From Bisporella sp. PMI_857 (Eukaryota > Ascomycota > Leotiomycetes > Helotiales > Helotiaceae), in the NCBI GenBank assembly GCA_021307315.1, contig JAJSPD010000077.1, positions 144,179 to 208,178 of the forward strand: a stretch of 64,000 nucleotides of DNA, written 5' to 3'. The stretch's first letter is position 1; every line of letters starts with the position of its first letter. Shown piece by piece: positions 3,216 through 64,000 of the stretch. The position numbers and the translations under genes are program-made. The notes under the pieces were generated by a model that was given only the letters and a program-made list of their open reading frames with translations, ran no database searches and was not told where the DNA came from.

Positions 3216-5333
3216 AGTTGGGCTGGGGATCGTTGATACGAGTGTTGAGAGGCTGTCGAGTGTTTCCAGATGAGACGAAGAGTTTGGCGGAACCGCAGCA
3301 ATCAGCTACATATAGAGACCAAAGATTCGCTGACTGAAAACACAACGTCTCTATGGAAGGAATGATAGGTTTATACCTTAACCGAAACACAAAACATCAT
3401 GCTCGCTGCCGAATGTTGCCAATCGATTCGTTGGGCAAAGGCTTAGATTCAAGCCCGAACCGTAGCGAAAGACCGTACTTTCGCATAGGCACGGTTAAAA
3501 ATGCAGGGGATTGCGTTTAGATTCAGACAGTAGTTTCAGTGCTATCGAATGGTTGTGTTGGAGAGGAGCGGCTGATTGGCAGTGTCTCATCGCTGACGTG
3601 GATGTGGCAGAGCATCTTTGGCAGCCTGAGGCAATTGTGCATCAAAGTCCGTCAACATTGGAAGACAATCCTCTGCTACGACACAAGCCATTCCAATTTT
3701 GGCCCTAGTTTATGATAGCGATTGAGGGACTAGAGATTGCCGAGGGGGCGAGGACCTGCATCCTGTTTGAAAGTACGAACCTTGTAGATATCCCAAGCCT
3801 TTGAAGGTGACTTCTCGCATTCCGGCCCTGCCAATGTGTCGATTCTCCACCGTCAAAGATCGTGCCTTTGGCTCAGGGTGGGAAATGACCACTGGCGGAT
3901 CAAAGGGTCTAAAAGAGATTTTATATCCAGTAACCTACCTACACAATCTTCAGGAATGCCAGGAACTTTTGTCCATTCAAGAAAGCGCCACAATAATCTA
4001 TCTAGACTTTCTGCCCTTCAGCAAGGCTACGCTCAATATTTGCACCTGCAATAGATCGGAGCAGCCCCTCCAAACGTGCTGCTTGTCAGAGCAGCACTAG
4101 TCAATGTAAAGCAGAACTTTCTGCTAGTCAAGTTAGAAAGCCCGCCCCTTCAGAGGAACTTGACTTAATCCCCCAATGTGCTTTAGTACTTTTGTACTTA
4201 CGAAGTCCTAGCAACACAAACTATGCATTCCATCCCCTTCCATGCAAGTGAACTTCCATAATGTATAGGACAATGTAGCCTTCTTTTGTACCAATGTTCT
4301 GAGGGATGCGAAAGCCGCAAGCAGAACAAAAGAACTGCGTGAAAGTCTGATTTCAGAAGACTGGGATGGAATTGATCCAACTATAAATATACAGCTCCTC
4401 TTTTCTCCATCTGAATATGTTCTCACTTATCAATATCGTGATATCCAATGGGAATTGAAAAGAGACACTATCCATTCTTTTTATTCCAAAGCTGCAGAAA
4501 TATGACATACAAGCCCCAACATCAACGTCATTCAAAGTCTCGCCAGGTAGAAACACAACAGCCGACCACCTCCATCCAACAATCGCCAGCAAGTAGCCAT
4601 GAGCAGCGGGAAAATGAAAGTTCCAGAGCAAAAAGAATAGAAGAGCTCGTCGCTCCAGCTTTCAACACCTCTTTCGCTGGGGAATACAACATTGAATTAG
4701 AATTGGACATTCCGAAGCACTCCAACATCGCTCCACTAGTAGCTGGCAATCCCAGCACTCAAAATCAGCGAAAGCAGCACGTCTCAATTCCACGGCCCTG
4801 GGACCAGCAACTCACCAATCAAGTCCATCAGCAAGACGGCTATAGTGACCTTGGCCAATCCCCGCTTGTTGTATGGATAAATCAGGGTCCTGTCGAAGAG
4901 CCCTTCAATTGTATTGGAGAATTGATTTTGATTTCTAGATGTCATGTGACAGAGGAATTTCCACAGCGAGGTGCTCGATGAAATGGGATAAGGGGGATTC
5001 GGGGGTAGGGATGGAGAAGGTAGGGATACGGCCGGCGCAGAACGTTCTTCGACGGATTACTCGATTTCAATAGCATGCTGATGTCTTCCCTTTGTTATGG
5101 CACCTTTTAAACATAAAACAATCAGGGAGTTGCACTTTTGTATGTAGCTGAACAGCTTCACCTTTTTGATATAAATTAAGCGATTCGGAAATATATCCCC
5201 AATTAGCAGCCACCTGATCAATGGTGCTCTCAACAATCAATGGTCGGGCTCAGTCACCACCAAGGCAGTATTAAACACCTAAAATTACACCACGAAATTG
5301 AATGAATAATTAGGCAGAAAATTTCTAGTTATT
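3216..5333. other. Intergenic with short unproven frames
   Basis: About 2.1 kb between the Clr5 gene and the aldolase. Several frames of 60-100 codons occur on both strands (for example 3511..3708 and 3801..4100, plus strand) but none shows a known domain or good splice context. The longest, 4448..4981, is listed separately. Confidence 0.5.
4448..4981 (+). CDS. Hypothetical hydrophilic protein, doubtful
   Basis: A 177-codon ATG-started frame. The predicted protein is rich in Gln, Ser and Asn, has no signal peptide or membrane segment and matches no family I recognise. Its length is unusual for chance in this gap, but composition and isolation leave it doubtful. It could be an exon of an undetected gene or a spurious frame. 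Confidence 0.25.
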   Translation: MGIEKRHYPFFLFQSCRNMTYKPQHQRHSKSRQVETQQPTTSIQQSPASSHEQRENESSRAKRIEELVAPAFNTSFAGEYNIELELDIPKHSNIAPLVAGNPSTQNQRKQHVSIPRPWDQQLTNQVHQQDGYSDLGQSPLVVWINQGPVEEPFNCIGELILISRCHVTEEFPQRGAR

Positions 5334-9742: not shown

Positions 9743-10749
9743 GATGCCGGTTATATGTTAGTATAGAGGACATTCAACTTAGGTATTATCGCGATGAGAT
9801 GAATACAAAGTGGAACATTTCAGCAAGTGGTAAATTCTTTTTGTAGTTTTTTTTTTTTGGATTCCTTTGCGTAGCTGGGCCGCTCTTAGGCGCTTATAGC
9901 CGAGGGTGGAGTGCCTTTTGTCCTTATGGTACGTAGAGAACATCCTCAAGGCTGGACTTTCTGTAAATATAAATGTCACACGTCACGAATAACTCGTTGA
10001 TAAAATCTTGCAGTATACACACCGAGGGGGTACAGGCTTTATATTGTCTAAGGCTGTTTATTAGCCACTAATGCTACACTAGTAAGGGCTCGTTATAATC
10101 AAGAAGAAAGGAGGATTTCTAGCAAGGGAAAGGAAGTCAATATAGAGAATTTTAACATAACTCATATTACTATAGCGTTCTTCGTAAGGATATACTGTTT
10201 AAGCGTCATTTCTAAAGCATATTGGATATGCCTGATATCGATGGAGATTTTCAAGGCATCCGGCTGTGACGATTGCCTAATTCGGAACTAACTGCCGATC
10301 TGATCCGATGCTAATGGCTCGAGTTTGGAGTGATGACACATTCATAGCCTCCTTCGTTTGGTAACAGGAGTCCCAGGTATGTATTCCTGTTCGGGCAAAA
10401 ATATATAGACGACTTGCTGTTGCTCAGCGCTAGGATGGTACCAAAATTGTGCTCGTTCCATAGCATTGCTGAAGATGAATACGAAGCAGCATCTCCACGG
10501 GGCCTTAAACTACAAATATCTACTCTACGCCCCCCTAAATCAAGCTTAACGACCCTGATCTCTTTCACAATAGTTCCTTTATTAATATTAATAGCGCTTA
10601 TGTCAACGCCATATCCGACAAATATTTCTACGTCATCGGCTCAGCCCCAAACCGCTCTTTCACTTCATGCCTCAACGACAGCCCGAAAAATGTTGAAACT
10701 ATATAAGTCTCATCACGCAACACGTTCAGGCCGTACCGCAACCTCAACC
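9743..10749. other. Intergenic, 5' remnant region of a decayed dehydrogenase
   Basis: About 1 kb. No intact gene. The last part (from roughly 10650) may contain the eroded N-terminal coding sequence of the aldehyde dehydrogenase pseudogene that follows. I could not place it in a single frame. Confidence 0.4.
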
Positions 10750-17911: not shown

Positions 17912-20900
17912 ATGGCGGCTTCTGATGTTCAGTTAGCAACCTTCCAAGCCGCCTTTAATCGCTTAAAGCAGACTGTCAGCTTTGATGACGCTTGCGCCTT
18001 CCAATCTACAACATTGAAGGATGTTTGGAATGCGGCAAAAGAGATCCAAAATGCCCAGCGTCAACGCCGCTCGCTGCGTAATATGGCTCGCCTAAAGCCA
18101 CTTCTTGAGTCACTAGACAAATATTCTAAAACGATTGGGGTGTTGTGCAACGGCACACCGTTTCTACCTTGGATCTGGGTGAATTATTCCCCTTCACAGA
18201 GCTCTTCGGGACCCTCCAGAAAAGTCACTAACTTTATGTAGGCTCCTATCAAATTGATGCTTCAGGTTAATTCTAGAGATTGCGGATATGCAACTCTCAA
18301 GCTGACAAATGTCTAGCTTGCAAACGAACACTCAAGTGTGTTAGATCAGCTTCTAGATGCTTACATGCAAATAGCGGAAGCTTTACCGCGTTTCGATCGC
18401 TTTCAGAACGCGTTTCCCGAGGACAAGAACCTCCAGAATTCTTTGGCAATGGTGTATGAAGATATACTTGAATTCCATAGATCCTCATACCAGTTCTTCA
18501 GACGAGGCTGTAAGTCACATGTATTTTCAATGTCAAAAATAAATCAAAGTGCTCATATACCACAGCATGGCATGTTTTCTTCGACTCGATGTGGAAAGAC
18601 TTCGCGGTTCGATTTCATGGTATTCTAGGAAGCCTGGCCAGGCACAGGGAACATGTCGACAAAGAAGCCTCATCAGTTGCCATTTTGGAGGCCAAGCAAT
18701 GGAGAACCCAACATCAACAATACGTTGAGCGACAAGAAATTGAGAGACAAGACTTCGTTCTGCATGAAGCAGTAAACTGGCTAGCAGTCGAGGATCGCCT
18801 TCAGGAAGATGAACTCAATAGGCTGGCTAATCTACGACACCCAGGCACTTGTAGGTGGATACTTGGCACGTCTCCCTTAGAATCATGGATCGGCAGTCTA
18901 GGCGGCAATTCTACTTTATGGTTAAATGGTATTCCTGGTGCAGGTCAGTTATTAGTTCTCTCCCTTCCTGCTTTGCCGTCAATCTGTTCAATGGGTTCTC
19001 ATACTGTATCGGGACTCATTTACTGCTCAGCAACATAGAAGTTAAGAGTGAATGTATTGACTTGTTGCAGGCAAGAGCGTTCTAGTCTCTTATATCATTC
19101 AACATCTTCAACTTCGGCCAGACATTACTGTTACCTATTTCTTTTGTAATAATGATACTAAGGATCAGCTCTGCAGTCTAGTATTACGGACATTGGCGGT
19201 CCAGTTACTGAGGTCTCAGCCTGATCTAGCATCGCACATTTTCGACAATTACCGTAGATGTAGATCCACACCGTCACTACCACAGATCAAAAAGCTCCTT
19301 CCCGACCTCATGGCGGCATGTCCTAATCCTCACATTATTATCGATGGGCTTGATGAATGCAGCGAGAAATATCAAAGAGCTATCCTTGCTGAGTTACTAG
19401 CATTAGTGAAATATCCCAACACCGCCGTCAGAATTATGATATCTAGTCGTGAAGAGACTTATATTAGTCGGACTTTACAGAAAGTTCTCACAATTTCGTT
19501 GACAGATAAGAAAGAGAACCTGAATGCAGACATTCAAGAGTATGTGAGATGTAAATTGGCACCTCTACGAGACTCATTTGGGGACGCGAATGTCGATGAA
19601 GTTGAAGTAACGGTGGCAAGGAAAGCGCACGGTAAGTAATTGAATTAAAACTTGGCATGAGATACCTAAGTATGTTTTAGGGATGTTTCTATGGGTTCGG
19701 CTCATTATCAAGGAGCTAGAAGACCGCCGCAGTGTTTCGGAATTGCGTGATGCTGCGAATAACCTTCCTCAAGGTTTGCATAAGGCGTGAGCTCTGTTCC
19801 TTTCTCCTTCAATGTACGAATTTAAAGTGGAGATTTAGTTATGGTCGGATCTTGGAGCGCATTCGAGATCAATACAGCGAGTATAGCCGTCACAAGGCGA
19901 TCCGTATCTTGGAGTGGATGGCGTGTTCTTTCCGGCCCCTCAAAGTGCACGAAATTCAAGATGGGATTTTCTTCGAACCTGACAATATGGAATTGAACCA
20001 GGAAACTAAATTGCATCCTAGCGTTATCGAAGTCTGCAAGCCAATCATCCAAATTGGGGTAAACAAGACGCTGGCGTTTGTCCACTTTTCTGCCAAGGAG
20101 TAGGTTCATCACTTTCCTCAGTCTCCAGCTAAACTGGTTTAACACTTCACTCTTAGGTATATTCTCCATCAAAGAAGCGGAAATTTCATAAGTGAAAGCC
20201 AGGCACACCACAACATTGCATACAGTTGTGTTTCATACCTGCTTACAAGTTCCCAAATTTTCGGATCTTGCGTATCCGAATATGAAAGCCTACTGCGCGT
20301 TGCCTTGGGCTTCCATGGCCTTCATCCTTATGCACACGAATTCTGGCACAGCCACGTCGTCCGCCATGCTGAAATGCAAGCCGCCTGTCACGCACCGCTT
20401 TCAAGTGATCTAGTTCAACAACTCGGAAAACTAGAGGCGTTTCGAAAGGCGACAGTATCTCGGGCATTCCAGAGGTTACTTCTCGATCAGAAAACCATAC
20501 TGGAAGTCGAAAAGGTGTTGCCACCATTGCATGAGAACCGAGGAACACGAATGTTATTGAGAGACATTAGACTCTTTCAAGGCATGATAAACCAGAACAA
20601 TTCAGGCTGTGGAACATACCATAGTAAGTTTGATCAGTAGGAGATCACCCTTCCTAGTTCTTAGATCAAACTGATAAGACGAAGGTATGCGAAAATATGA
20701 GATGGAAAATGATCCAACTCTTTTGAGCGACATAAACTACCGCTACCAAGATATCTTAGAGCAATTTCTCCGCACTGATTCACTTCCCGGGGTAGATGAC
20801 CAAATCCTGAGAGCCTCCAAGGAAATTTATGGAGATTCGGCCTTTCTGTGTCGCTATCGGCCATGCACAGGCACTTTGCGTGGATTTTCGGATGCTGACA

Positions 20901-22169
20901 AACGAGATAGACACGAAGCTACCCATATTAGAAGTTTCAAATGCGGAGATAAGAAATGCGACTTCTACGCCGTTGGCTTTGCAACAAAGACAGCGCTGCA
21001 GCGGCATAGCGAGATTTACCATAGCAATGTTGGCCAACAATTGATCATGCCAATACGTCAGCGTCGCCAACCGGTCAACCTTCGGGAACGTTTCCAAATC
21101 GATGGCATTACCCAAACGTCAATTGCGAGCAACGTTACTAATTCAACCAATAATCCCTCACAAGGTGATCCCAATCACCATAGAACGTTTGATCAAATCT
21201 TGAACGAGCAACGAGAAGCACATCGACGGGTCCTCTCTCTCTATAAGAAGAGCCAGAATGAAGACTATACTAAGCGACCGAAATATGCAGAAGTTCGCGA
21301 AACTATGGAGGCTCTTTCCGAACTCAACAGAAAGCCTAGCGGTATGTTAGATCTACAGAAGGAGCAGAAACGGCATGAAGACTGGATGCGAAAAGGCCAA
21401 AACCTATTCGGCAAAGCAAACGTTCCATTTGATATCCTCAAGAGTCACATGGGACACGTCCTAGAGCGAAACACGGACTGCTTTAATATCAATTCAGACA
21501 AGCCCGGGGCCTCATTGGACTCTAAGTTACACAGCCGGGGAGATCCGATATTTCGAGAGGTTTACTGTATTTGCCGTCGTGTTGAAGATGGTATGATGAC
21601 CGAATGCGAGCTCTGCCACGAATGGTATGTATTTAAGCCGCTTAATTTAATAATCTATGCTAATTTATATTAGGTACCATGACAAATGTTTATACATTGC
21701 TCGAGTAAAGATTAAGGACGATTATAAGTACACTTGCCATATTTGCAATTGGCGAGTCAGACTTCCTCCTGATTCTGCTCGACCTGAGTTAGAAGATCTG
21801 AAATCTTGGCAAGACGAGATCCCCTTACTACCATTCCAGCCTGACGAGGAAGAAATCCTTTCAAAGATCATCGACAATGCACAAAAGTTCCGGACTTACA
21901 TCTCTCCATTCTGCAACCCCGCCAAGGGAATAGCAGAGGAAGTCGAGATCAAACGCTTTTACCTCCGCAAGATTGAAGGAGCCGGGATTCTTCTTACATT
22001 CGAGACCAATTTCTTCCAACAGGAGCTTCATAAATGGTCACCAGTCGCACTCGAGCCTCCGCCAATTCTTAAAGTCCTAAAATCAACCCGCGCCTCGTCC
22101 AACGAAACTTCAAAATTCTCATGGCCCAACATGGCGTCAACGACCACTATAAGCTTCCCCAAAACCTAA
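17912..22169 (+). CDS. NACHT STAND NTPase with C2H2 fingers fused to a Lid2/JARID1-like PHD tail
   Basis: Ten exons: 17912..18178, 18242..18265, 18317..18509, 18566..18943, 19071..19631, 19681..19786, 19839..20099, 20157..20623, 20679..21624, 21674..22169. They keep frame throughout (1232 residues); splice sites are GT-AG. The exon 9 acceptor (20678 or 20684) is the least certain. Domains: an N-terminal helical region of fungal NACHT proteins (NGTPFLPWIW); Walker A GIPGAGKS (about residue 283), rebuilt across an intron; Walker B HIIIDGLDEC (about 376); a winged-helix-like segment (LEWMACSFRPLKVHEI); C2H2-type pairs (about 805-875). Then comes a segment resembling the C-terminal part of Lid2/JARID1 H3K4 demethylases: EQKRHEDWMRKGQNLFGKAN, PHD finger CICRRVEDGMMTECELCHEWYH (about 1045), TCHICNWRV, and RFYLRKIEGA...ETNFFQQELHKW. 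No JmjC domain is present. STAND proteins act as signal-sensing switches in fungal self/non-self responses; the role of the fused tail is unknown. The finger and Lid2-like parts share one unbroken exon, so the fusion is not a modelling artefact. Confidence 0.85.
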
Positions 22170-54440: not shown

Positions 54441-55215
54441 CTAAGGATCATCAATATCAGCATTAAGCACAACACCAGACGAAGTCCCCCATACCGGGTT
54501 CTGGAACACCTCCGCACAGTGCCTAATATGAGCCTCTGTATCATATCTCGCTTCCACAATAACGCTACTCGTCTGCGAGCGGAACTGCTTGATCCAATAC
54601 ATATAGCAGTGCACAACATGCCAGCGCCAGGTCACATGGAAACGCGAATCTGGGTTATCTGCCATAGACATGACCTCGGACATACTCAGCTCTTGAGTAT
54701 GATTTCGATCGGCATAGTAGATCCATGTCCCATTGGGTCCGTCTCCCAGTGTTTCGAATTCAGCGGTGAGTTCAGCGTCTTGACAGTATGGTTGCATCCA
54801 TGCAGGAGATAAGGAGTCGTAGACGCAACCAAGTGAGATTGCTTCAGCTGTTGAATTTCCGCAAGCACAAGACCGGCGACTTTCTGGAACATTGTGTTGG
54901 TGTTCGAGATGCTGGTGCTCATGATGAATGGCTTGCGGACGTTTGCGAACAGCTTCGCTAAAGATACCGAACAAACCCCAGAGTGCAAGTGCATAGAGCA
55001 CCATATCCCTCACTATCCTTAGATACCGTCGGATCTTTTGCTTTCTCTCAGACTTGTAAAGCTCGCCCAAAGCTTGCTTGTAGTCTTCATGTGCGCTCTC
55101 ACTTTGCAGAAGCTTCTCGACTGAAGCATTATCGTGGTCACTGATTAGGAACGCAAATTAGATACCTCTACAAACTGAAGTAGTGGAAATTTTACCCTAA
55201 ATACACGTTCTCCAT
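54441..55215 (-). CDS. UstYa-like membrane protein with two HxxHC motifs (RiPP locus, left)
   Basis: Two exons: a 20-nt first exon 55215..55196 (MENVYLG) and 55140..54441, giving 239 residues. One transmembrane helix at about 52-68 (MVLYALALWGLFGIF) follows a charged N-terminus (RKQKIRRYLR), so the bulk faces the secretory lumen. A cysteine module, CACGNSTAEAISLGC...WMQPYC, is at 98-126, then a WIYYADRN stretch. The two signature motifs are HVVHC (181-185) and HIRHC (211-215), 30 residues apart. Paired HxxHC motifs after a single TM define UstYa/DUF3328 proteins, which oxidise and cyclise Kex2-released peptides in dikaritin pathways. The cysteine module is not part of the classic UstYa pattern I know, so this is probably a divergent branch. 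A paralogue sits on the other side of the repeat-peptide gene. Confidence 0.8.
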
Positions 55216-56960
55216 CTCTCCCTTTAAATCTACAAATTTCCGAAGAGCGATATTCTGGGGATTTTCCTGGATCTGTCCAAGAAAGTGGCATCTACGAGAG
55301 TAGAGGAGTCTTTGGCAATGGAATATACTCGGTTGATTGAAAGCCTGAGATATATCTATCAGTTATTGACGCTTCCTCTTTTGAGACCTATAGTATCGTG
55401 ACCCTCGATAAGTTGAGACATAAAAGTAGAGAGAAATAAAGACAGAGATGAATAAAGTTTCGGCACTGTCTGAAGCGGAGGAGCAAGCAGTATCAAGGTA
55501 CCGATAGCGGAGAGCCTACTTTCTAGTGCATTGTCTTACTTGAGGCTGCACTGCCACGGACTTTAGCGCATCCAGGGCGCCTTCTCGATGCATAACCTAT
55601 CGTGTATGCTATGCTACGGAGAAAGGTGTTCACCACTTTATTGACAGCTTCAGCTATGGAAATCATCATCATGCTAATTCCTGAAAATGTCCGTAACCGA
55701 ATAAGCCATGGGATTGCCAAGTGACCCTACCACTGGCACTGCATCACAGCTGAGCCAAATCAGCCAGATCTTCACCTGAAATGATATTTGCTTATTTGCA
55801 TATCAATCAGCCAATAACCTTACCAAAGTAGGTCGAAGTGAGCATCCTTGGTCAGTAGACATTTTTTCGGTATACGAAGACCCTGCATCCGAGACTCTGC
55901 ATGCAGCTAAACAACCAGGATCTAGTGGCATGATCGCCTGCCACGATGGCGCAAGGTTTAATAGAGCTTGGCTTTGCAACGGTTGACATCGGTGTAACTT
56001 CATAAACCAGTTAAAACGGTGGGGCTAAAGAGCTTCAGCGACCGTACGCGCCACCCAATGGTATACCTTGACAGTGGCGCATATATTCAACCGCGAAATT
56101 GACGGGCATACTTATTCTTATAACGATGGGCAAGTAACGCACTTGGCGATCTCTCTGCATAAGACTACATAGGGTACGTCATATAATAATAAGTGGAAAG
56201 GTGGCGATGCAAAATGGTAGTAGATTCAGATTTAGCGTTGTATTTAAGCCCCTCAAGCGCAAACAGTGCCTAGAACAAATATCACTTTATGGAGCTCAGC
56301 AATAAGACTAGCTTTCTGGATAAAAGTTAATGCGACCTTGACATGGGTGCTGGATTAGGCATATTGCGGAGACATTCAATAGCAGCATCTAAGGGAAAGC
56401 CTTCAAGAGAAAAGGTCTGAACTTAAAGCGACGTCAGAGTCTGTCTATTTTTAGCTCTAGATCCCTGCACAATCTGCATCTGATATTGATACCATCTTTC
56501 AATACAATGGAGGTCAATATTTACAAAAAAAAGACATTGGAAGGGCTGTCTCTATTGACCGACGACGGCAAGTTGTTAGGAGGGGAATAAGCCCTGGCTC
56601 AAGTGACGCTGAGAGTCAAAACAGCATACTCTTTGCAATAAACCTAAATGAAGCAAATGTATCACAATTTAACTATGTTGTGCCAAGGCAGTTAGAAACG
56701 TATTAATGCGAGAGGAAGGGAACACCATGGGTTGAGACTGAGCTGGCATATTCTCATTATGTGCCTAAACCTCCACAAGTTTCAAAGTAAAGACTGTCCA
56801 TCCATACAGAAATTTGGCCTAGCACTCAAATCGCATTTGAAATCTGTCTGTGGAGACGATGCGCCACCTTCGAGCCCCTAGTCCGCTCGCAAACCCTTAA
56901 TATCCCACCACCCCCTAAATCCATCATTTGGAGAGGATTTCCCGTGAGCTCAGCTTACCC
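55216..56960. other. Intergenic within RiPP-like locus
   Basis: 1.7 kb between the left UstYa-like gene and the precursor, which are on the same strand. Minus-strand frames 55803..56003 and 55523..55720 could splice together (ending GSLGNPMAYSVTDIFRN) but match nothing I recognise and contain stops. It may be a decayed gene. The part nearest 55215 is the promoter of the left UstYa-like gene. Confidence 0.4.
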
Positions 56961-57380
56961 CTAACGATTCTCGGAGTCGGGCTTGACTGCATTCAAAGCA
57001 GCGCCACGCTTTTCCGAGTCCGGCTTCACAGCGTTCAGTGCTGCTCCGCGTTTCTCGGAGTCCGGCTTCACAGCGTTAAGGGCGGCTCCACGCTTCTCGG
57101 AATCTGGCTTGACGGCATTCAAAGCCGCACCGCGTTTCTCAGAGTCTGGCTTCACTGCATTCAAAGCCGCACCACGCTTCTCAGAGTCTGGCTTGACGGC
57201 ATTCAAAGCCGCGCTGCGCTTCTCAGAGTCTGGCTTCACTGCATTCAGAGCAGCATCGCGTTTATCGTCGGTGTATGAGCGGACAGGGAATACTAGGGCG
57301 TCGTTTGGAATAGGTGCGGGCGCAGAGCTTGCCAAGCTGAACAGAGCAGCGGCGAGGACAGCATTGGTGTAGAAACGCAT
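56961..57380 (-). CDS. Repeat-containing secreted precursor peptide (candidate dikaritin-type RiPP precursor)
   Basis: Single exon, 139 residues, ATG 57380. The signal peptide MRFYTNAVLAAALFSLASSA is followed by a short pro-region APAPIPNDALVFPVRSYTDD ending in KR. Then come seven tandem 14-residue units. Unit 1 is DAALNAVKPDSEKR, unit 2 starts with Ser, and units 3-7 start with Gly; the last ends ENR at the stop. Each KR is a Kex2 site, so processing would release up to seven near-identical dodecapeptides (G/S/D)AALNAVKPDSE. At DNA level the units differ at many third positions but encode the same residues, so the peptide is under selection. The architecture matches UstA-type dikaritin precursors and other Kex2-processed repeat proteins. 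There is no aromatic residue in the core, unlike ustiloxin or phomopsin. Alternatives: a pheromone-like or surface repellent peptide. Two UstYa-like genes flank it. Confidence 0.88.
   Translation of the reverse strand: MRFYTNAVLAAALFSLASSAPAPIPNDALVFPVRSYTDDKRDAALNAVKPDSEKRSAALNAVKPDSEKRGAALNAVKPDSEKRGAALNAVKPDSEKRGAALNAVKPDSEKRGAALNAVKPDSEKRGAALNAVKPDSENR
56964..57257 (-). repeat. Seven 42-bp tandem repeats encoding the core peptide
   Basis: Units in coding order: 57257..57216, 57215..57174, 57173..57132, 57131..57090, 57089..57048, 57047..57006, 57005..56964. No length variation between units. Non-silent differences are limited to residue 1 (D, S or G) and the Lys-to-Asn change in the final EKR. 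Confidence 0.95.
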
Positions 57381-58656
57381 CTTGCAAAGGTGAAAAATGG
57401 ATTGACACTGATAGATTGGAAAGTAGTTTATCTCTAAGGCGTTAAGTGGTACTGAGGGAATGTTTATGATTGAAAACCTGGACCCGTCAATAGGTGTTAT
57501 ATACCCTACGTTCTCGGAAGTGTAAAGAGTTATGTGGGACGTGCTTCAAAGGCTCCACTGGGAAGTTTACATGGGTCCATGAACTAGTACTCACATCGCT
57601 GGCTTTTAGTTCAGAGGTCGCAAGCGTTATCAGAAACCGAAGCATTGCATGAGCTGAAGCAGGGTTATGTTAGTGTTGCTTTATGGCGGTGGCATTGCTA
57701 GTGACGCAAAAAATAAATGAAATGTCGAAACTGGCAGTGCATTACTGTATAATATCAAGTTATAAAGTCATCGTACCCGAAAAGATGCCCATATCCAAGG
57801 ATGCATCAACCGTGCTAACAGAATTTATAGGTGGAATACCATACATATTTAATAAATGCTATTAAATTAACGGTTTGATTTATTTCAGGATGATTTAAAC
57901 TTATTCAAGTTATGTGTCCCATCCATATATCCCTATCGTTACATTTAAAGTTCAAGGATTACATTACTATAAAATAAAAGTATTTTCTTCTGCTTTGGTA
58001 TATCCTACATAACGGTGGTTCGCTTTATGGCGCCATGTAGTGCATGTTATAAATATCTTATCATCAGTGCGCAGTACTAGGGATTCGTTATGGTCGACAA
58101 TTTTCCTGCATTTGACCCTACAAGTAATATATAAGTCGATATTACTAGCTGCCATGGGCTGAAGGATTTTAGTAACCTACGGCCTTTTTATAATACCTAT
58201 AGAGCATAAATAATATTATATTCATAACATGTAAGCCGTGGGATTATTTACACCGAGTGCGGCCCGAGTTTTCACCCAAAAGAGTGAGGAAAGTTCCTAA
58301 ATGGCAGAAATATTGCTCTTATGTGCTGCATCTTCCTCAAACTGAGGCAACGCCAGAAACTCGGTAAAATGCTACCTGTACTCCGATACCTTACATAGAA
58401 AGCTATCAGCCTAAAATGCACATTTTCGGGCGGCACGAGGAAGCTCATTGTGGGTCGCATTCATTCAGCTGCGGCCTACACGGTACGTTGCCGACCCCGG
58501 AGCGCCATTGATGTTTGTGATAGAAGGGAACTAATCAATTTTTATCACTTAACTTTGTCCTTTCTTTCTTTTATCTTAACCAAGTCAGTTCTGAGAGCTT
58601 TTTCACACATAGCCCAAATCCGATACACCTTTCTTTAGCGCAACGAAACAACTCAG
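57381..58656. promoter_or_regulatory. Divergent promoter region of precursor and right UstYa-like gene
   Basis: 1.28 kb between the starts of the precursor (minus) and the right UstYa-like gene (plus). A TATATAAC-type sequence lies on the minus strand near 57500, about 120 bp before the precursor ATG. Frames inside (57683..57865, 58450..58638) look spurious. Confidence 0.5.
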
Positions 58657-59407
58657 ATGAATAGGTAAGTCATTGCGTTGACCTTTATTTTCACAAACTC
58701 ATTTATGTAGAATGAAATTGTTTAAGCAAATGACTTCGTCGAATAAGACGGATACCCATGGCGACAAAGCCAACTACAGCCTCTTGCATGAGTCCAGCGA
58801 TGACGGCCAAAGTCTAGACAGTGATCTAGATGCCACGCGTAATTCTAAGGCAAAATTCAAAAGCGGCCATTACTTGGTCCTCCTCGTGAAGAGTGTACTT
58901 ATCGGATTTGCGTTCTGGGGACTCTGCAACCTCGGGCAATTAACTATATCCAAGTTTCCCAAGCCCGTGTCGTGCTCTTGTGGCGGGACTACCGTTGCGG
59001 AAGCGCTCTCCAGGGGTTGCATATTCACGCCACTGGCACTTGGATGGCTACCGCCTCAGTGCCTGGACATGGAGCTTTCGGACGATTTCGATAAGCAAGG
59101 CCCACTTCCGGGAGGTGAATGGCCATATTGGGCTGAGCTTAACGGCACGACTCGTCTCACCCGTGAAGAGATGGGCTTGCTAGCGGAAGTTGGCGGTGTC
59201 TTCTACACGACACAAGAGTGGCATATTATGCACTGCATGTACACATGGCGCAAGCACTACCGGTCTAAGTTTACTGGGGTGACAGTCGAAAGGAGATCTA
59301 ATGGAATAGACCATATCCATCACTGTGAGGGTATTGTGTTGGACAGGGCTCCACTGCAGAAGATTTGGACGATGGCTGGCGTTGAACTTAACGCAGATTT
59401 AGGTTAA
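58657..59407 (+). CDS. UstYa-like membrane protein with two HxxHC motifs (RiPP locus, right)
   Basis: An 8-nt first exon (58657..58664, MNR) and 58711..59407, giving 234 residues; if unspliced, translation from ATG 58712 would give 231. TM helix at about 58-77 (LVLLVKSVLIGFAFWGLCNL). Cysteine module CSCGGTTVAEALSRGC...WLPPQC at 91-120, WPYWAELNGTTRLTREE, then HIMHC (174-178) and HIHHC (204-208), again 30 residues apart. It is clearly paralogous to the left gene: same motif order and spacing, and same tiny first exon with a phase-2 intron. Likely an ER/Golgi-lumen oxidase acting on the processed peptide, by analogy with UstYa/UstYb pairs, where two homologues are often needed. Direct evidence for activity is absent. 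Confidence 0.82.
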
Positions 59408-60253
59408 AAGTTCAAGCAATAATTGTAACGTCATAGCATCGATTTATAGGTTAGGAGGCCCCCTGTAAGGAGAGACGTTACTTAGCTAGCTATACTGCGC
59501 ATAGTAACCACGAATATAAGGAATCTACGGGTACTACAAGGAGAAGTATCTTCTACTGAGCAGTCCTGTAATCCAACATCATTGCCACGTTGTGATGCTT
59601 ATGCCTATACATTAGAGTATCGAGTCCAAATAACGGTACTATTTATAAAAGCTGCTTAAACAGCACTATTTTTATAGTAGTACTTCAAGCTGATTGCTTA
59701 CAACCGGTAGTAGCCCTTGTTGCTCTAGTATGACGGCCCTTCCTATACTAGGATAGCAATGGCACCTAGTACGGGAGGCTAATTTGAAAAAAGGCAAACT
59801 TCCTTGTTAAAATTGAAGCAAAAGTCACCAGACGTATAAGATGTTTTTTTTATAGTAGGCTACTAGAAGCTATGAATGCGAGTTATTATTTCAGCCTATA
59901 TATGTCTTTTAGTTAGTCCTTTCAAATATTTGGCATCAAGAACAAGTCTTGGAAATTTCAAAACTAGGCAGTTGAATAATTTCAAGAAAAGCTTCCCATA
60001 GATTGTATAGTTGATCTAGTTGAATGAAATACATAAGATACTAAACCCGAGGCACATTGTCTACACTCTCAACCCCCTAAGCTGTAGAGTTAATTTTGCT
60101 ATACTAATAACTAGTGTTACGGTTCTATGAGCGCTTCGCAGAATAGAAGATATACAACAAGTTGGTAGTCTGAGCAGAAGCAAGTGTATCACATATAGAT
60201 ATGTAATCCCAATAACAAGTATAAAAATACCATTTGAGTTAAGCACAAAGTTC
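59408..60253. other. Intergenic with dispersed repeat copy B
   Basis: About 850 bp. No gene seen. Its right end (about 60150..60250) carries repeat copy B (CCCAATAACAAGTATAAAAA, then TACCATTTGAGTTAAGCAC). Confidence 0.5.
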
Positions 60254-60437
60254 TGTCACGGAGAAGTGGGTCCGCACATGCTCATAAGCGTGCGACCCAC
60301 TTTCTCCTAGGCTACAAGAGCCTGCCTGGCTTGATTTTTAGTTCTACAAGTAAAAATACACACATGCCGAATACGTTGCGCTAGCTCTTATGAGCTAGAA
60401 CCGAGCTCTCGAAGGACGTACAAGCTACTCCGTGACA
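60254..60437. repeat. LTR-like segment TGTCACGGAG...CTCCGTGACA
   Basis: 184 bp with perfect 10-bp inverted ends. An internal palindrome near the left end (AGTGGGTCCGCAC / GTGCGACCCACT) could form a hairpin. It abuts the AT-rich relic. Solo LTR or small non-autonomous element. Confidence 0.45.
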
Positions 60438-63400
60438 TAATTTTATAAAAAAAAACAATTATTAAACGAATATATTACTGCAGTTTTAGTTCTAAAAACA
60501 GTTTTATTTACAGCTATTATTAACTATAGTAAAACAAATAAAAGTTTTTAAAGATTTGCACATTTTTAACGAAGTTTGCTATAATATTTACAAAACTGTA
60601 TATATTGTTTATAAACTAGCTAACAATAATTAAAAATAGTAGCAATGTAACAACCGGTATGCCCAAGGTGCGACACGGAGGCCATGGCACGGGATCAGGA
60701 GGCTGAAGATCAGGGTATAAAGGGTTTCAGAGCCGATACGAAGGAAAGTCGGAGTCGCCTATATAAAGGGCCTGCTCTAACTCTCTACAGTTGTTTTTTA
60801 TGTTTTTGTATTTTTTGTAAGTAGACCTATAAAGCAATTACTGTCAGCTTATTGTACGCACTTTTATATGCTTTTATTCTAGCTCGTGATTTTTTGCGTC
60901 GTTATATTATACAAAAACATCAAGTTAGCCGAAAACGGCCTTTTTATAATATTTTATTTTCGAGTTTATTTTACTATACCGGACTTAATTCGGTGCAAAG
61001 TTATATTAGATATTTTTAAATAGCCGAAATTCTAGAAATTTTTCGGACAACTAGTAAACTTGGGTTTAGTTCAGCGCGTGCAGCTAGTAAAAATCGTCGT
61101 AAAAACGTCCAAAAAAAATATTAAAGATTTTCAAGAACTTTTTTTACGCAAAAGAAATTGCAGACAGAAAACAAGCAGCAACAAGCTAACCGGAAACTTG
61201 TTTTTTTATACACTTTATATTTACTACCGAATTTTTATCGATATAAGTTATTATGTCGGCATTACAACTATAAAACTACGTTTCAGCCGACAAAGCGCAA
61301 AACAGTCAGACTTTTACAAAAAAGTCAACTTTTACTTAAATGCTTTTTTTATTTAAATTTCGTACAACTTAACGTGCGCGAAATCTTTGCAATTACAGCA
61401 ATTCTGATAAAATGCGCGGCATTATTCAATTATTAAAAACAAAAGCAAGCGACGCGAAACGTATATAGCAAAACAATCGCGCGAAGTTTCTGACTTTGCA
61501 AAACTTAATTGCAAAACTAATTCGGCTAATTGCCTAATTAGTCTAAAATCAAAACAAACGTCGACTTGCTATAAATCCGTTGTATTACTAAAAAACGCTA
61601 CGTTTCAAAACTTTAAACTTGCGACAACTATTAAGAAATAGTTTTTTATACGAAGCTAGCTATTTAACACACAATTTTCAAAATTAGCTACAAAAAACTT
61701 TTAACGCTAATTAAACTTTTATTTTTTTTGCTTTAAAAAAACGAAGCTAACAAAAAAAAAAAATTCTTTAAACAAAAGAAATAGTTTTACTTACTATTAA
61801 TAAAAAGTTTCTATTCGAAATCGTTTAATAGTTAACTTTAATTACTATTCGACAATTCATTTTTAAAAAGCTTTAGTGTAAAAACAACTAAAAAACGAGC
61901 TAAAAAATACTTAAAAAACATTTACTTGTTTAAAAAAAGTTTTAACAACGCGAAAAAAATATTAAAGCTTTTAGCTACTTATTATTTAACTGAACATAAA
62001 ACAAAAAAAACGCGAAACGAGTTTTATAATATAAAAATAAAAAGCGCTAGCTACGCTAGTAAAACGTTTTTCTAGTTTAAAGCTAGATTCTTTAATTTAA
62101 CTACTAAAAAAAAAATAAACAAAGCAGAATAGTTCTTTTTTATGTAAACTAAAATATCGAACTTTTTTCGATTCGTTTTCGTAAGTTTTAAACACTAATA
62201 AAAAAGAAATTTTACGGAAATAATATACGCTTTAACAGCTATTAATATAGAAATTCGTAGAATTGCTTAGCTAAACACTTTTTACACTAAAAAAGCTTAC
62301 AAAACAAAAAAGCTAATTGCAAAAAACTTTTATTAACACTAAAAATTTCGGCTATAGTTACTACGAGTACACAAAACTTTAGTTCGAGTATTTATTTTTT
62401 TCGACACAAATTTTTTACTTCTGCTAAAAAAACTTTTATTACTTACTTTATTAATTGCTTAAAACAACAACAAAAAAAACGTGTTTCAAATATAAAAAGT
62501 TTAAACACTTTGCTAATAAATGCTTACAAAAACTTACGATTAAAAAAATCGTCGAAAAAAATACAGAACAAAAACAAAAAAAACTAGTAGTAAATAAAAA
62601 GCATAAAAATCAAAAAGAAAACGACGAAGTTTAAGCAAAAGCTCGTTTTTAAGCTTACGTAAATATAATTTGTTAAAGTTAAACTTAACAAAATTAATAA
62701 GTAAAAAACAGTTTTTAGTTTCTTGCTAGTTTAGTATAAATAAAACTAGAATTTTATTGCACTTGTTAACAAATACAAAAGCAAATAATTACTTTTTTAT
62801 AAATCGTTTTTTTGCAATTCGTTTATTTAATGCTTTTAACATTTTTATTCGACAATTACTTTACTTTGTACTAATTAAAAAATTTCAAAAAAAAAATATC
62901 TAGTCGCATATTTTAATACATTCGTTTATACTTGACTATTAATAGTCGGCGGATATACAATTGCTTTTTTGTAATTTTAAACTTAAAAAATTAAAACGCT
63001 ATTATTAGTAATAAATAGTTAAGTTATTTAAAATAAATTAAACTTAGCTCGAAATCGACTTATTTAACTTTTCGAATATTTTTCGACTAAGTTATAGTTT
63101 AAAAAACTAATAATTTCTTATAAATTCCGAAAACTTATTAACAGTTATAACAATTACTAAGTAAATGCAAACAAAAAAATTAAACGTTAAAAGTAAAAAA
63201 AGTACAGCGAATAAAAAAATCACGTTTTATTTTAATAGCACTTATTCGGAGTTTTGTATTTCGAGTTTTTTTTTCGAATTTTATATAAAAACTTTCCGAC
63301 TTTAAAAAAAAGTAAAAACACAATTTTTAAAGCTTTTTAAAATAGTCGACATTTGCTAAATTAGCGCTAATACGCTATACTTTAACATAAAATCAAGTAG

Positions 63401-63799
63401 CACTAAGTTTTTCCAAACTAGCTTATACAAAATAAATCGAATTATTAAAGAATTAAAAGCTGCGAAAAATATAAAAACCGAACAACAAATCCGTTTTAAA
63501 CTATTAAAATTGTATAATTGTTTCAAAACGTATTTTTTAAAATAGTATTAAACAAGCTACTTTTTTATCGCTTGTATAACTACAAGATTTAGTTAAAAGT
63601 TTCTTTATTTAGCTATTTTTTTTTTGTACCGACCAATTCGCAAAAAGCTAAAAACAGTAAAAAAAGTATTTGCTAAAGCAATTTAAGCAAAAGTTTTATA
63701 ACTTACAGCAAAAGCTTTTTCGCGTTTTTTGTTTTATTCGTTAAAAGCTTAACAGTAGTTTGCGTTTTTGCATCGACTATTAAAAGCTTAATACTTTAT
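60438..63799. mobile_element. RIP-type AT-rich relic of a retroelement (tentative)
   Basis: About 3.4 kb of extremely AT-rich sequence with no real frame. A less-altered island at about 60650..60850 (GTAACAACCGGTATGCCC..., then a TATATAAAGG TATA-like box) resembles an LTR promoter. The block is bracketed by LTR-like segments at 60254 and 63800. Class I origin is an inference from flanks; the interior is too mutated to identify. Confidence 0.5.
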
Positions 63800-63992
63800 T
63801 GTCACGGTCCTCAATATCGCACCAGACGCCCATTGGTTCGCTTACCAGCTCGCCTATTTGTGGTCACGTGGTCATGGTCTTTATGTTAGGGATGCCACAG
63901 CAACAGCTACACCTTTCCTTTTTAGTTTAGTATTCTCGTAATTGAAGCACCTATTCAGCGCCCTTACAGGCCATAGGATCGTGATCGTGACA
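63800..63992. repeat. LTR-like segment TGTCACGG...CGTGACA
   Basis: 193 bp with inverted TGTCACG/CGTGACA ends. CTTTA occurs on both sides (63794..63798 and 63993..63997), one base off on the left, suggesting a 5-bp target duplication as for Gypsy-type LTRs. GC content is normal, in sharp contrast with the AT-only sequence to its left. Confidence 0.55.
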
Positions 63993-64000
63993 CTTTAACT

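What the first reader, a model, noticed from the sequence alone, without database searches (positions are those of the whole stretch)
54441..59407. Candidate undescribed fungal RiPP cluster: repeat-peptide precursor between two UstYa-like genes
Seen: a signal-peptide protein with seven KR-bounded 14-residue repeats lies between two paralogous single-TM proteins, each with two HxxHC motifs 30 residues apart. Known: dikaritin pathways (ustiloxin, phomopsin, asperipin, victorin) combine Kex2-processed repeat precursors with UstYa-family (DUF3328) oxidases. Inference: this 5-kb locus is a minimal dikaritin-like cluster with a new core peptide. No peptidase, methyltransferase or transporter was recognised next to it.
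Basis: partly seen in the sequence, partly recalled or inferred. Interest (0 to 1): 0.93.

Follow-up and report, generated by a model that had tools for sequence, protein, structure and literature searches.

The report
Minimal fungal repeat-peptide oxidation gene trio
Three neighbouring genes of the fungus Bisporella encode a repeat protein with seven near-identical 14-residue units and, on either side of it, two related proteins with paired HxxHC motifs; together they likely make a secreted peptide that is predicted to be oxidised by copper enzymes even though its repeated unit has no aromatic residue, the kind of residue at which the characterised relatives are closed into rings.

Summary
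In Bisporella sp. PMI_857 (Helotiales) a 139-residue protein with a signal-like start and seven [D/S/G]AALNAVKPDSE-KR units lies between two paralogous proteins, each with two HxxHC motifs 30 residues apart. Silent changes fill 13 of the unit's 14 codons while the protein hardly varies (dN/dS 0.017), so the peptide is under strong selection. Relatives of all three proteins come from contigs of one length (32,926 bases), most likely one contig; the two HxxHC genes also pair in three more places. Against strict linkage: 4 of 5 precursor relatives, Chlorociboria's among them, share no contig length with an A or B relative. The UstYa label is only partly supported: neither protein reaches Pfam's PF11807 cut-off. 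They belong to a divergent group with ten more members in this genome, five within 4 kb of a PF11807 gene and one beside a second repeat precursor. Best reading: Kex2 releases the repeats and the HxxHC pair oxidises them as copper enzymes, as CctR (DUF3328) does to its peptide. The unit has no Tyr, Phe, Trp or His, so a ring closed on an aromatic residue is excluded for it; aliphatic C-H oxidation, or none, remain. New variant of a known kind; product unknown.

The parts
54441..55215 (-). Gene A, divergent UstYa-like protein, 239 aa (B0O99DRAFT_600805): exon 1 55196-55215, intron 55141-55195, exon 2 54441-55140
   Evidence: spliced translation equals P0060 letter for letter; AlphaFold2 model mean pLDDT 86.3
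54606..54620 (-). Gene A first HxxHC (HVVHC, residues 181-185)
54516..54530 (-). Gene A second HxxHC (HIRHC, residues 211-215)
56961..57380 (-). Precursor gene, 139 aa, repeat protein with Kex2-type sites
   Evidence: five relatives
57321..57380 (-). Predicted signal peptide, residues 1-20 (read by eye, no predictor run)
   Evidence: sequence itself; N-terminal part conserved in the relatives
57258..57320 (-). Pro-region up to the first KR (residues 21-41)
   Evidence: RSYTDDKR kept as RSY.(D/N)DKR in 3 of 5 relatives (P0055, P0056, P0057); P0059 has RSYADDNR
56964..57257 (-). Seven 14-residue units [D/S/G]AALNAVKPDSE[K/N]R
   Evidence: spacing 14 six times, dN/dS 0.017
58657..59407 (+). Gene B, divergent UstYa-like protein, 231 aa from 58712, or 234 aa with inferred exon 1 58657-58664 and intron 58665-58710
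   Evidence: relatives
59222..59236 (+). Gene B first HxxHC (HIMHC, residues 171-175)
59312..59326 (+). Gene B second HxxHC (HIHHC, residues 201-205)

Best explanation
The trio is a repeat precursor with Kex2-type KR sites between two divergent UstYa-like proteins, which are predicted to oxidise its peptide as a pair of copper enzymes. Proposed course: the precursor enters the secretory pathway by its signal peptide (read from sequence); a kexin-type protease cuts after each KR and the KR is trimmed (inferred from sequence and from the KEP literature), giving GAALNAVKPDSE, DAALNAVKPDSE and SAALNAVKPDSE; a Ste13-type peptidase may then remove the leading XA, leaving ALNAVKPDSE (inferred: some units of the Chlorociboria relative begin directly with ALNAV). 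Proteins A and B, each held in the membrane by one helix with the HxxHC pair on the lumenal side (helices modelled, topology inferred), would bind copper and use O2 at those motifs (inferred from CctR) and oxidise aliphatic C-H bonds of the peptide: hydroxylation, desaturation, or a crosslink not made on an aromatic ring. Leu, Asn, Ala, Val and Pro of ALNAV-x-P are the likeliest sites, since the Lys is Arg or Glu in relatives. That A and B work as one heterodimer is a guess from their repeated pairing and from CctR being a dimer.
For: Selection on the peptide: across the seven units 153 silent against 26 replacement pairwise nucleotide differences, dN/dS 0.017; replacements only in the first residue and the last unit's K/N. 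Relatives of B (P0043), precursor (P0059) and A (P0061) all with contig length 32,926; A and B at 10,344 (P0064, P0016); neighbouring tags LARI1_G005526/5527 (46,269) and LOCC1_G008020/8021 (21,599). A and B form two clades joined to each other (A 99/95, B 93/94, A+B 95/96; 40 rows, unrooted). Two HxxHC motifs in 61 of 67 A hits and 40 of 53 B hits P0001-P0053, the rest largely cut-short models. Ten further divergent paralogues in the genome; 5 of 10 lie 1.3-3.7 kb from a PF11807 locus, 4 of them within 2.5 kb, while 0.5% of the genome lies within 2.5 kb of any UstYa-type gene and 0.05% between two such genes at most 5 kb apart (window pair left out). A second repeat precursor lies beside one of the ten (L036:1753-2451 - and 3290-4045 +). 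CctR (DUF3328) is a copper-dependent, O2-using C-H hydroxylase, a homodimer, inactive when its HxxHC residues are mutated (PMC12435403, parts 1 and 2 of 3 read). The double HxxHC is proposed as a marker of RiPP-related DUF3328 proteins (PMC12048977, passages). One kexin-type P_proprotein match in the genome.
Against: PF11807 cut-off not reached by A or B; in the paralogue alignment 2 of 11 members match at E up to 1, best 0.054. Profile comparison with seven canonical UstYa frames of the same genome is weak: A 72% probability, B 4.8%, paralogue set 86.5%, aligned mostly around the HxxHC motifs. Four of the five precursor relatives (P0055, P0056, P0057, P0058) share no contig length with any A or B hit; in Chlorociboria precursor (47,008) and A relative (122,975) are on different contigs and no B relative was named. 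At the other 9 paralogue loci no repeat precursor was accepted; the detector's one further hit there (L033:152-424, a 91-aa frame with RR sites and no signal-like start) I judged spurious. No expression, mass or activity data.
Confidence: 0.58

Rival explanations
1. The precursor gives an unmodified linear signalling peptide, in the manner of an alpha-type pheromone or another KEP hormone; the neighbouring HxxHC genes act on something else.
For: Every unit starts with XA (DA, SA, GA) after KR, the Ste13-type motif of alpha-pheromones (passages of PMC9769878). No aromatic residue for the known ring closures. 6120 of 7878 KEPs have no DUF3328 neighbour (PMC7329392 section 7). No canonical pheromone repeat WCxxxGQPC (recalled) was found elsewhere in the genome (0 hits), nor a tandem with a looser pattern (10 scattered hits, control 6), so the usual pheromone gene is unaccounted for.
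Against: Sits between two HxxHC genes, with a likely copy of that arrangement on another contig; [quoted passage not shown] The unit has no Cys or Trp, which the canonical pheromone has (recalled). Lachnellula and Chlorociboria are listed under a wide-spread KEP type G-2 in which 121 of 138 are annotated as pheromones (PMC7329392 Table 2); whether the ALNAV precursor itself falls in that type could not be checked.
Confidence: 0.27
2. A fuller dikaritin-type cluster cut short by the contig end: tyrosinase, methyltransferase, peptidase or transporter genes lie beyond window position 64000.
For: The contig ends 4.6 kb after gene B in AT-rich sequence (28% G+C from 60001).
Against: In the 54 kb to the left no tyrosinase, methyltransferase or peptidase match was seen among the frames scanned; one sugar/MFS transporter lies 25 kb away. 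The unit has no Tyr for a tyrosinase to act on.
Confidence: 0.08
3. The neighbourhood is coincidence: an unrelated KEP lies among UstYa-like genes in a gene-poor contig end.
For: Gene-poor region; Chlorociboria precursor and A relative unlinked.
Against: Only 0.05% of the genome lies between two UstYa-type genes at most 5 kb apart; the arrangement likely recurs on the 32,926-base contig.
Confidence: 0.06

Closest known systems
Kex2-processed repeat proteins (KEPs; Umemura 2020 PMC7329392; Le Marquer 2019 PMC6339444, passages only)
   Same: Signal-like start, tandem near-identical units separated by KR; genes of 1758 of 7878 KEPs have DUF3328 neighbours, 1.7 each on average.
   Different: AALNAVKP is in no paper of the held library (of the 442 papers with the letters ALNAV inside any word, the 20 listed were unrelated; supplements not searchable here). 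No aromatic residue, whereas 65.6% of the repeated sequences of DUF3328-linked KEPs have Tyr.
Dikaritins: ustiloxin, phomopsin, asperipin-2a, victorin
   Same: Repeat precursor plus HxxHC-type oxidase genes close together; ustiloxin has two such genes.
   Different: Those rings use Tyr or, in victorin, Phe (passages); the unit here has neither. No tyrosinase, methyltransferase or peptidase found beside it. Enzymes below the PF11807 cut-off.
CctR, DUF3328 hydroxylase of cyclochlorotine (PMC12435403)
   Same: One membrane helix, lumenal HxxHC(x)nHxxHC domain; hydroxylates an aliphatic C-H of a peptide.
   Different: Acts on a non-ribosomal cyclic peptide; homodimer; here two sister proteins and a ribosomal precursor, activity untested.
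Own-genome pair on contig C44 (L036)
   Same: Repeat precursor with signal-like start (AVGQVGAVGEVGDVGAVGEVGQVGY-KR) 0.8 kb from a divergent HxxHC protein; no PF11807 match on that contig.
   Different: One enzyme gene seen; repeat ends in Tyr; unrelated repeat sequence.

Membership tests
Kex2-processed repeat proteins (KEP) | Signal peptide at the N-terminus | tested here: inconclusive
   Hydrophobic segment read by eye, conserved in relatives; no predictor available
Kex2-processed repeat proteins (KEP) | Several near-identical repeats bounded by Kex2 sites | tested here: met
   Seven units of 14 residues, KR between them
UstYa / DUF3328 (PF11807) | Score above Pfam's curated cut-off | tested here: not met
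   B 13.8 bits against 25, A no match; at E up to 0.1, 21 of 47 B-family rows and 11 of 66 A-family rows match, best E 1.1e-4 and 2.1e-3
UstYa / DUF3328 (PF11807) | Double HxxHC motif | tested here: met
   Both proteins, 30 residues apart; two motifs in 61 of 67 A hits and 40 of 53 B hits
UstYa / DUF3328 (PF11807) | One membrane helix and a helical domain carrying the motifs on two helices | tested here: met
   AlphaFold2 models: A helices 178-194 and 209-220, pLDDT 95-98 there; B helices 168-188 and 195-209, pLDDT about 62-85. Lumenal topology inferred
UstYa / DUF3328 (PF11807) | Profile similarity to canonical members | tested here: inconclusive
   hhalign 72% (A), 4.8% (B), 86.5% (paralogue set)
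UstYa / DUF3328 (PF11807) | Copper-dependent oxidase activity | not testable with these tools
   needs protein
Dikaritin RiPP cluster | Class-defining DUF3328 enzyme next to a repeat precursor | tested here: inconclusive
   precursor yes; enzymes carry the motif but stay below the cut-off
Dikaritin RiPP cluster | Tyrosinase, methyltransferase, peptidase or transporter in the cluster (not in every accepted member) | tested here: not met
   none near; one sugar/MFS transporter 25 kb away; right side only 4.6 kb; short exons could be missed
Dikaritin RiPP cluster | Aromatic residue in the core used for ring closure (true of the characterised members; not a formal rule) | tested here: not met
   [D/S/G]AALNAVKPDSE has none
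Dikaritin RiPP cluster | Modified product | not testable with these tools
   needs LC-MS
Ascomycete alpha-pheromone | Cys- and Trp-containing repeat (recalled) | tested here: not met
   repeat has neither
Ascomycete alpha-pheromone | XA or XP dipeptide after the Kex2 site | tested here: met
   DA, SA or GA in all seven units (motif from PMC9769878 passages)

The most novel reading that the evidence does not exclude
The two sister proteins form a heterodimeric copper oxidase, part of a large divergent UstYa-like group that the present profile does not see, and they install an aliphatic C-H oxidation or an aliphatic-aliphatic crosslink in an aromatic-free ribosomal peptide: a fungal RiPP class that searches keyed to PF11807, tyrosinase or Tyr-bearing cores pass over.
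Probability: 0.22. Interest if true: 0.8.

Novelty: new variant of a known kind. Interest (0 to 1): 0.55.

Why it matters
If right, UstYa-type chemistry on ribosomal peptides does not need an aromatic ring and can do with two enzyme genes, and counts of such pathways keyed to the PF11807 profile are too low: two repeat precursors of this one genome have only sub-cut-off HxxHC neighbours. The seven copies, silently diverged but alike in protein, also show from a single genome that the peptide is the selected product.

Tried and rejected
Enzyme tails mimic the core: both HxxHC proteins end in GV(V/E)LNAD, which resembles GAALNA of the unit. Shuffled cores match as well in 267 of 2000 (A) and 378 of 2000 (B) trials over the whole protein; over the last 15 residues in 38 and 71 of 2000, but that stretch was chosen after seeing it. 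Similar tails occur in distant relatives too, so it is not used as evidence.

Searches that led nowhere: PDB folds for both models; viral contigs for A, B and precursor; PDB sequences (none; one chance match, E 0.39); NCBIfam. Pfam 'Gp6_C-I' and others on the precursor, 'Collagen' on the C44 precursor and 'Reov_VP3_GTase' on A are taken as composition or chance matches. The antisense frames over the repeat array are mechanical. One search (UstYa, heterodimer) matched only unrelated papers among the 10 of 31 listed.

Alpha-pheromone search: one search gave 0 hits; one search was mistyped by me (26 bases, last codon out of frame) and is discarded; one search gave 10 scattered hits. Inconclusive.

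The precursor search scored only the 7998 candidates sharing most words. Genome family counts are lower bounds by the tool's own statement. Relative P0058 changes frame inside the repeats; it was left as it is.

Dropped rows: alignment A1 holds the window's B and 46 of the 54 hits (left out: P0001, identical to the window; P0013, P0014, P0016, P0043, P0047, P0053, P0054, cut-short models). A2 holds 66 of the 67 hits (left out: P0075, a fragment). The tree used 29 relatives, A, B and 9 of the 10 paralogues (C219 left out). In one search P0054 was not counted.

Full report
WHAT WAS CHECKED. The window is the last 64 kb of contig C260 (208,178 bases) of a 55.6-Mb fungal assembly. A protein identical to gene A is deposited as B0O99DRAFT_600805 of Bisporella sp. 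PMI_857 on a contig of the same length, so the source is that fungus (Leotiomycetes, Helotiales).

THE PRECURSOR. The 139-residue protein at 56961-57380 (-) has a signal-like start, a short pro-region ending in KR, and seven 14-residue units in exact register. Thirteen of fourteen codons of the unit vary silently among the copies; replacements occur only at the first residue (D, S, G) and in the last unit (K to N). Over all 21 pairs: 153 silent and 26 replacement nucleotide differences, dS 2.2, dN 0.037, ratio 0.017; 13 of 16 variable columns are third codon positions. The copies are old rather than a fresh expansion, and the peptide is what selection keeps. The stretch AALNAVKPD is encoded seven times in the genome, all here. 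Relatives (five hits; sequences): P0055 with seven such units, one of them AAVNAV; P0056 with four DAALNAIKPESEKR; Chlorociboria P0057 with three ALNAVEPENEKR alternating with a second unit; P0059 irregular, with eight ALNAV, six of them ALNAV-x-P; P0058, whose frame changes inside the repeats. The Lys is not conserved. The repeats of the window, P0055, P0056 and P0057 have no aromatic residue; P0059 has one unit with W and F and one ALNAVH.

THE FLANKERS. A and B are each other's closest paralogues (41% identity), with one hydrophobic helix, conserved Cys, and two HxxHC motifs 30 residues apart. Profile comparison of the two families is clear (100%, E 5.8e-66). In a 40-row unrooted tree each forms one clade and the two join each other (the program warns of long branches among the outer paralogues, so their order is unsure). 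Pfam's UstYa profile (PF11807) scores B at 13.8 bits against a cut-off of 25 and does not list A; 21 of 47 B-family and 11 of 66 A-family rows match at E up to 0.1. The model of A is confident (mean pLDDT 86; 95-98 around the motifs) and puts them on two helices, as described for CctR; the model of B is weaker (70). No solved structure resembles either.

A DIVERGENT GROUP. The genome holds 75 PF11807 exon matches, merged here into 48 loci, and, by single-protein searches, at least 10 more relatives of A and B outside the window. None of those ten places is among the 75. Five of ten (C13, C200, C226, C275, C199) lie 1.3-3.7 kb from a PF11807 locus. Stretches around all ten were fetched (some cut by contig ends) and scanned for repeat precursors: one was accepted, at C44, beside its HxxHC gene, and one hit in L033 was judged spurious.

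LINKAGE ELSEWHERE. Equal contig lengths link B, precursor and A at 32,926 bases, and A and B at 10,344, 46,269 (Lachnellula arida, tags 5526/5527) and 21,599 (L. occidentalis, tags 8020/8021). Against: four of five precursor relatives share no contig length with A or B hits, among them Chlorociboria's, whose A relative is on another contig; among named hits Aspergillus and Claviceps appear only in the A list and Oidiodendron only in the B list; Hypoxylon appears in both, in different species.

MECHANISM. The CctR paper (PMC12435403; parts 1 and 2 of 3 read) shows a DUF3328 protein to be a copper enzyme that uses O2 on an aliphatic C-H bond, through the HxxHC pair, as a dimer. The KEP survey (PMC7329392: outline and abstract, section 6 part 1, section 7 and passages) reports DUF3328 neighbours for 22% of KEPs and Tyr in 65.6% of the repeated sequences of those. 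Described ring closures use Tyr, or Phe in victorin (passages of PMC7329392 and PMC9233826). The regular unit here has none, so if A and B act on it they must use other positions. A kexin-type domain is present in the genome. The XA dipeptides suggest Ste13-type trimming (PMC9769878 passages). Shown: anatomy, selection on the peptide, gene pairing (by equal contig lengths and tags), motif conservation. Inferred: secretion, cleavage, copper, oxidation, heterodimer.

NOVELTY. A KEP with HxxHC neighbours is a known kind. The variant is the aromatic-free unit, the enzyme pair below the profile's cut-off, and the lack of other pathway genes close by. Searches of the held library for the repeat and for Bisporella or Lachnellula with RiPP terms (15 of 37 papers listed) showed no description of this locus; supplements could not be searched and most subscription papers are not held.

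Noticed in passing
L036:1753-2451 (-) and L036:3290-4045 (+) (contig C44): A second repeat precursor (units of AVGQVGAVGEVGDVGAVGEVGQVGY-KR behind a signal-like start) 0.8 kb from a divergent HxxHC protein; no PF11807 match listed on that contig.
   Followed up: partly
window 54441-59407, enzyme C-termini: Both HxxHC proteins end in GV(V/E)LNAD, resembling GAALNA of the peptide; not significant over the whole protein by shuffling, and kept in distant relatives.
   Followed up: yes
own genome, contigs C275, C101, C197, C200, C68: UstYa-rich genome: 75 PF11807 exon matches in about 48 loci, several in groups (C275 57-69 kb, C101 663-675 kb).
   Followed up: partly
L033:152-424 (-): A 91-aa frame with two long repeated segments and RR sites, without a signal-like start; judged spurious as a precursor.
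   Followed up: partly
window 60001-64000: G+C falls to 28% at the contig end.
   Followed up: no
window 18514-22166: Neighbouring frames with NPHP3_N/NACHT-type and PLU-1-like matches.
   Followed up: no
Lachnellula gene B models P0013, P0014 and contig models P0016, P0047: Gene models stop right after the first HxxHC plus M, suggesting an intron there that Bisporella gene B lacks.
   Followed up: no
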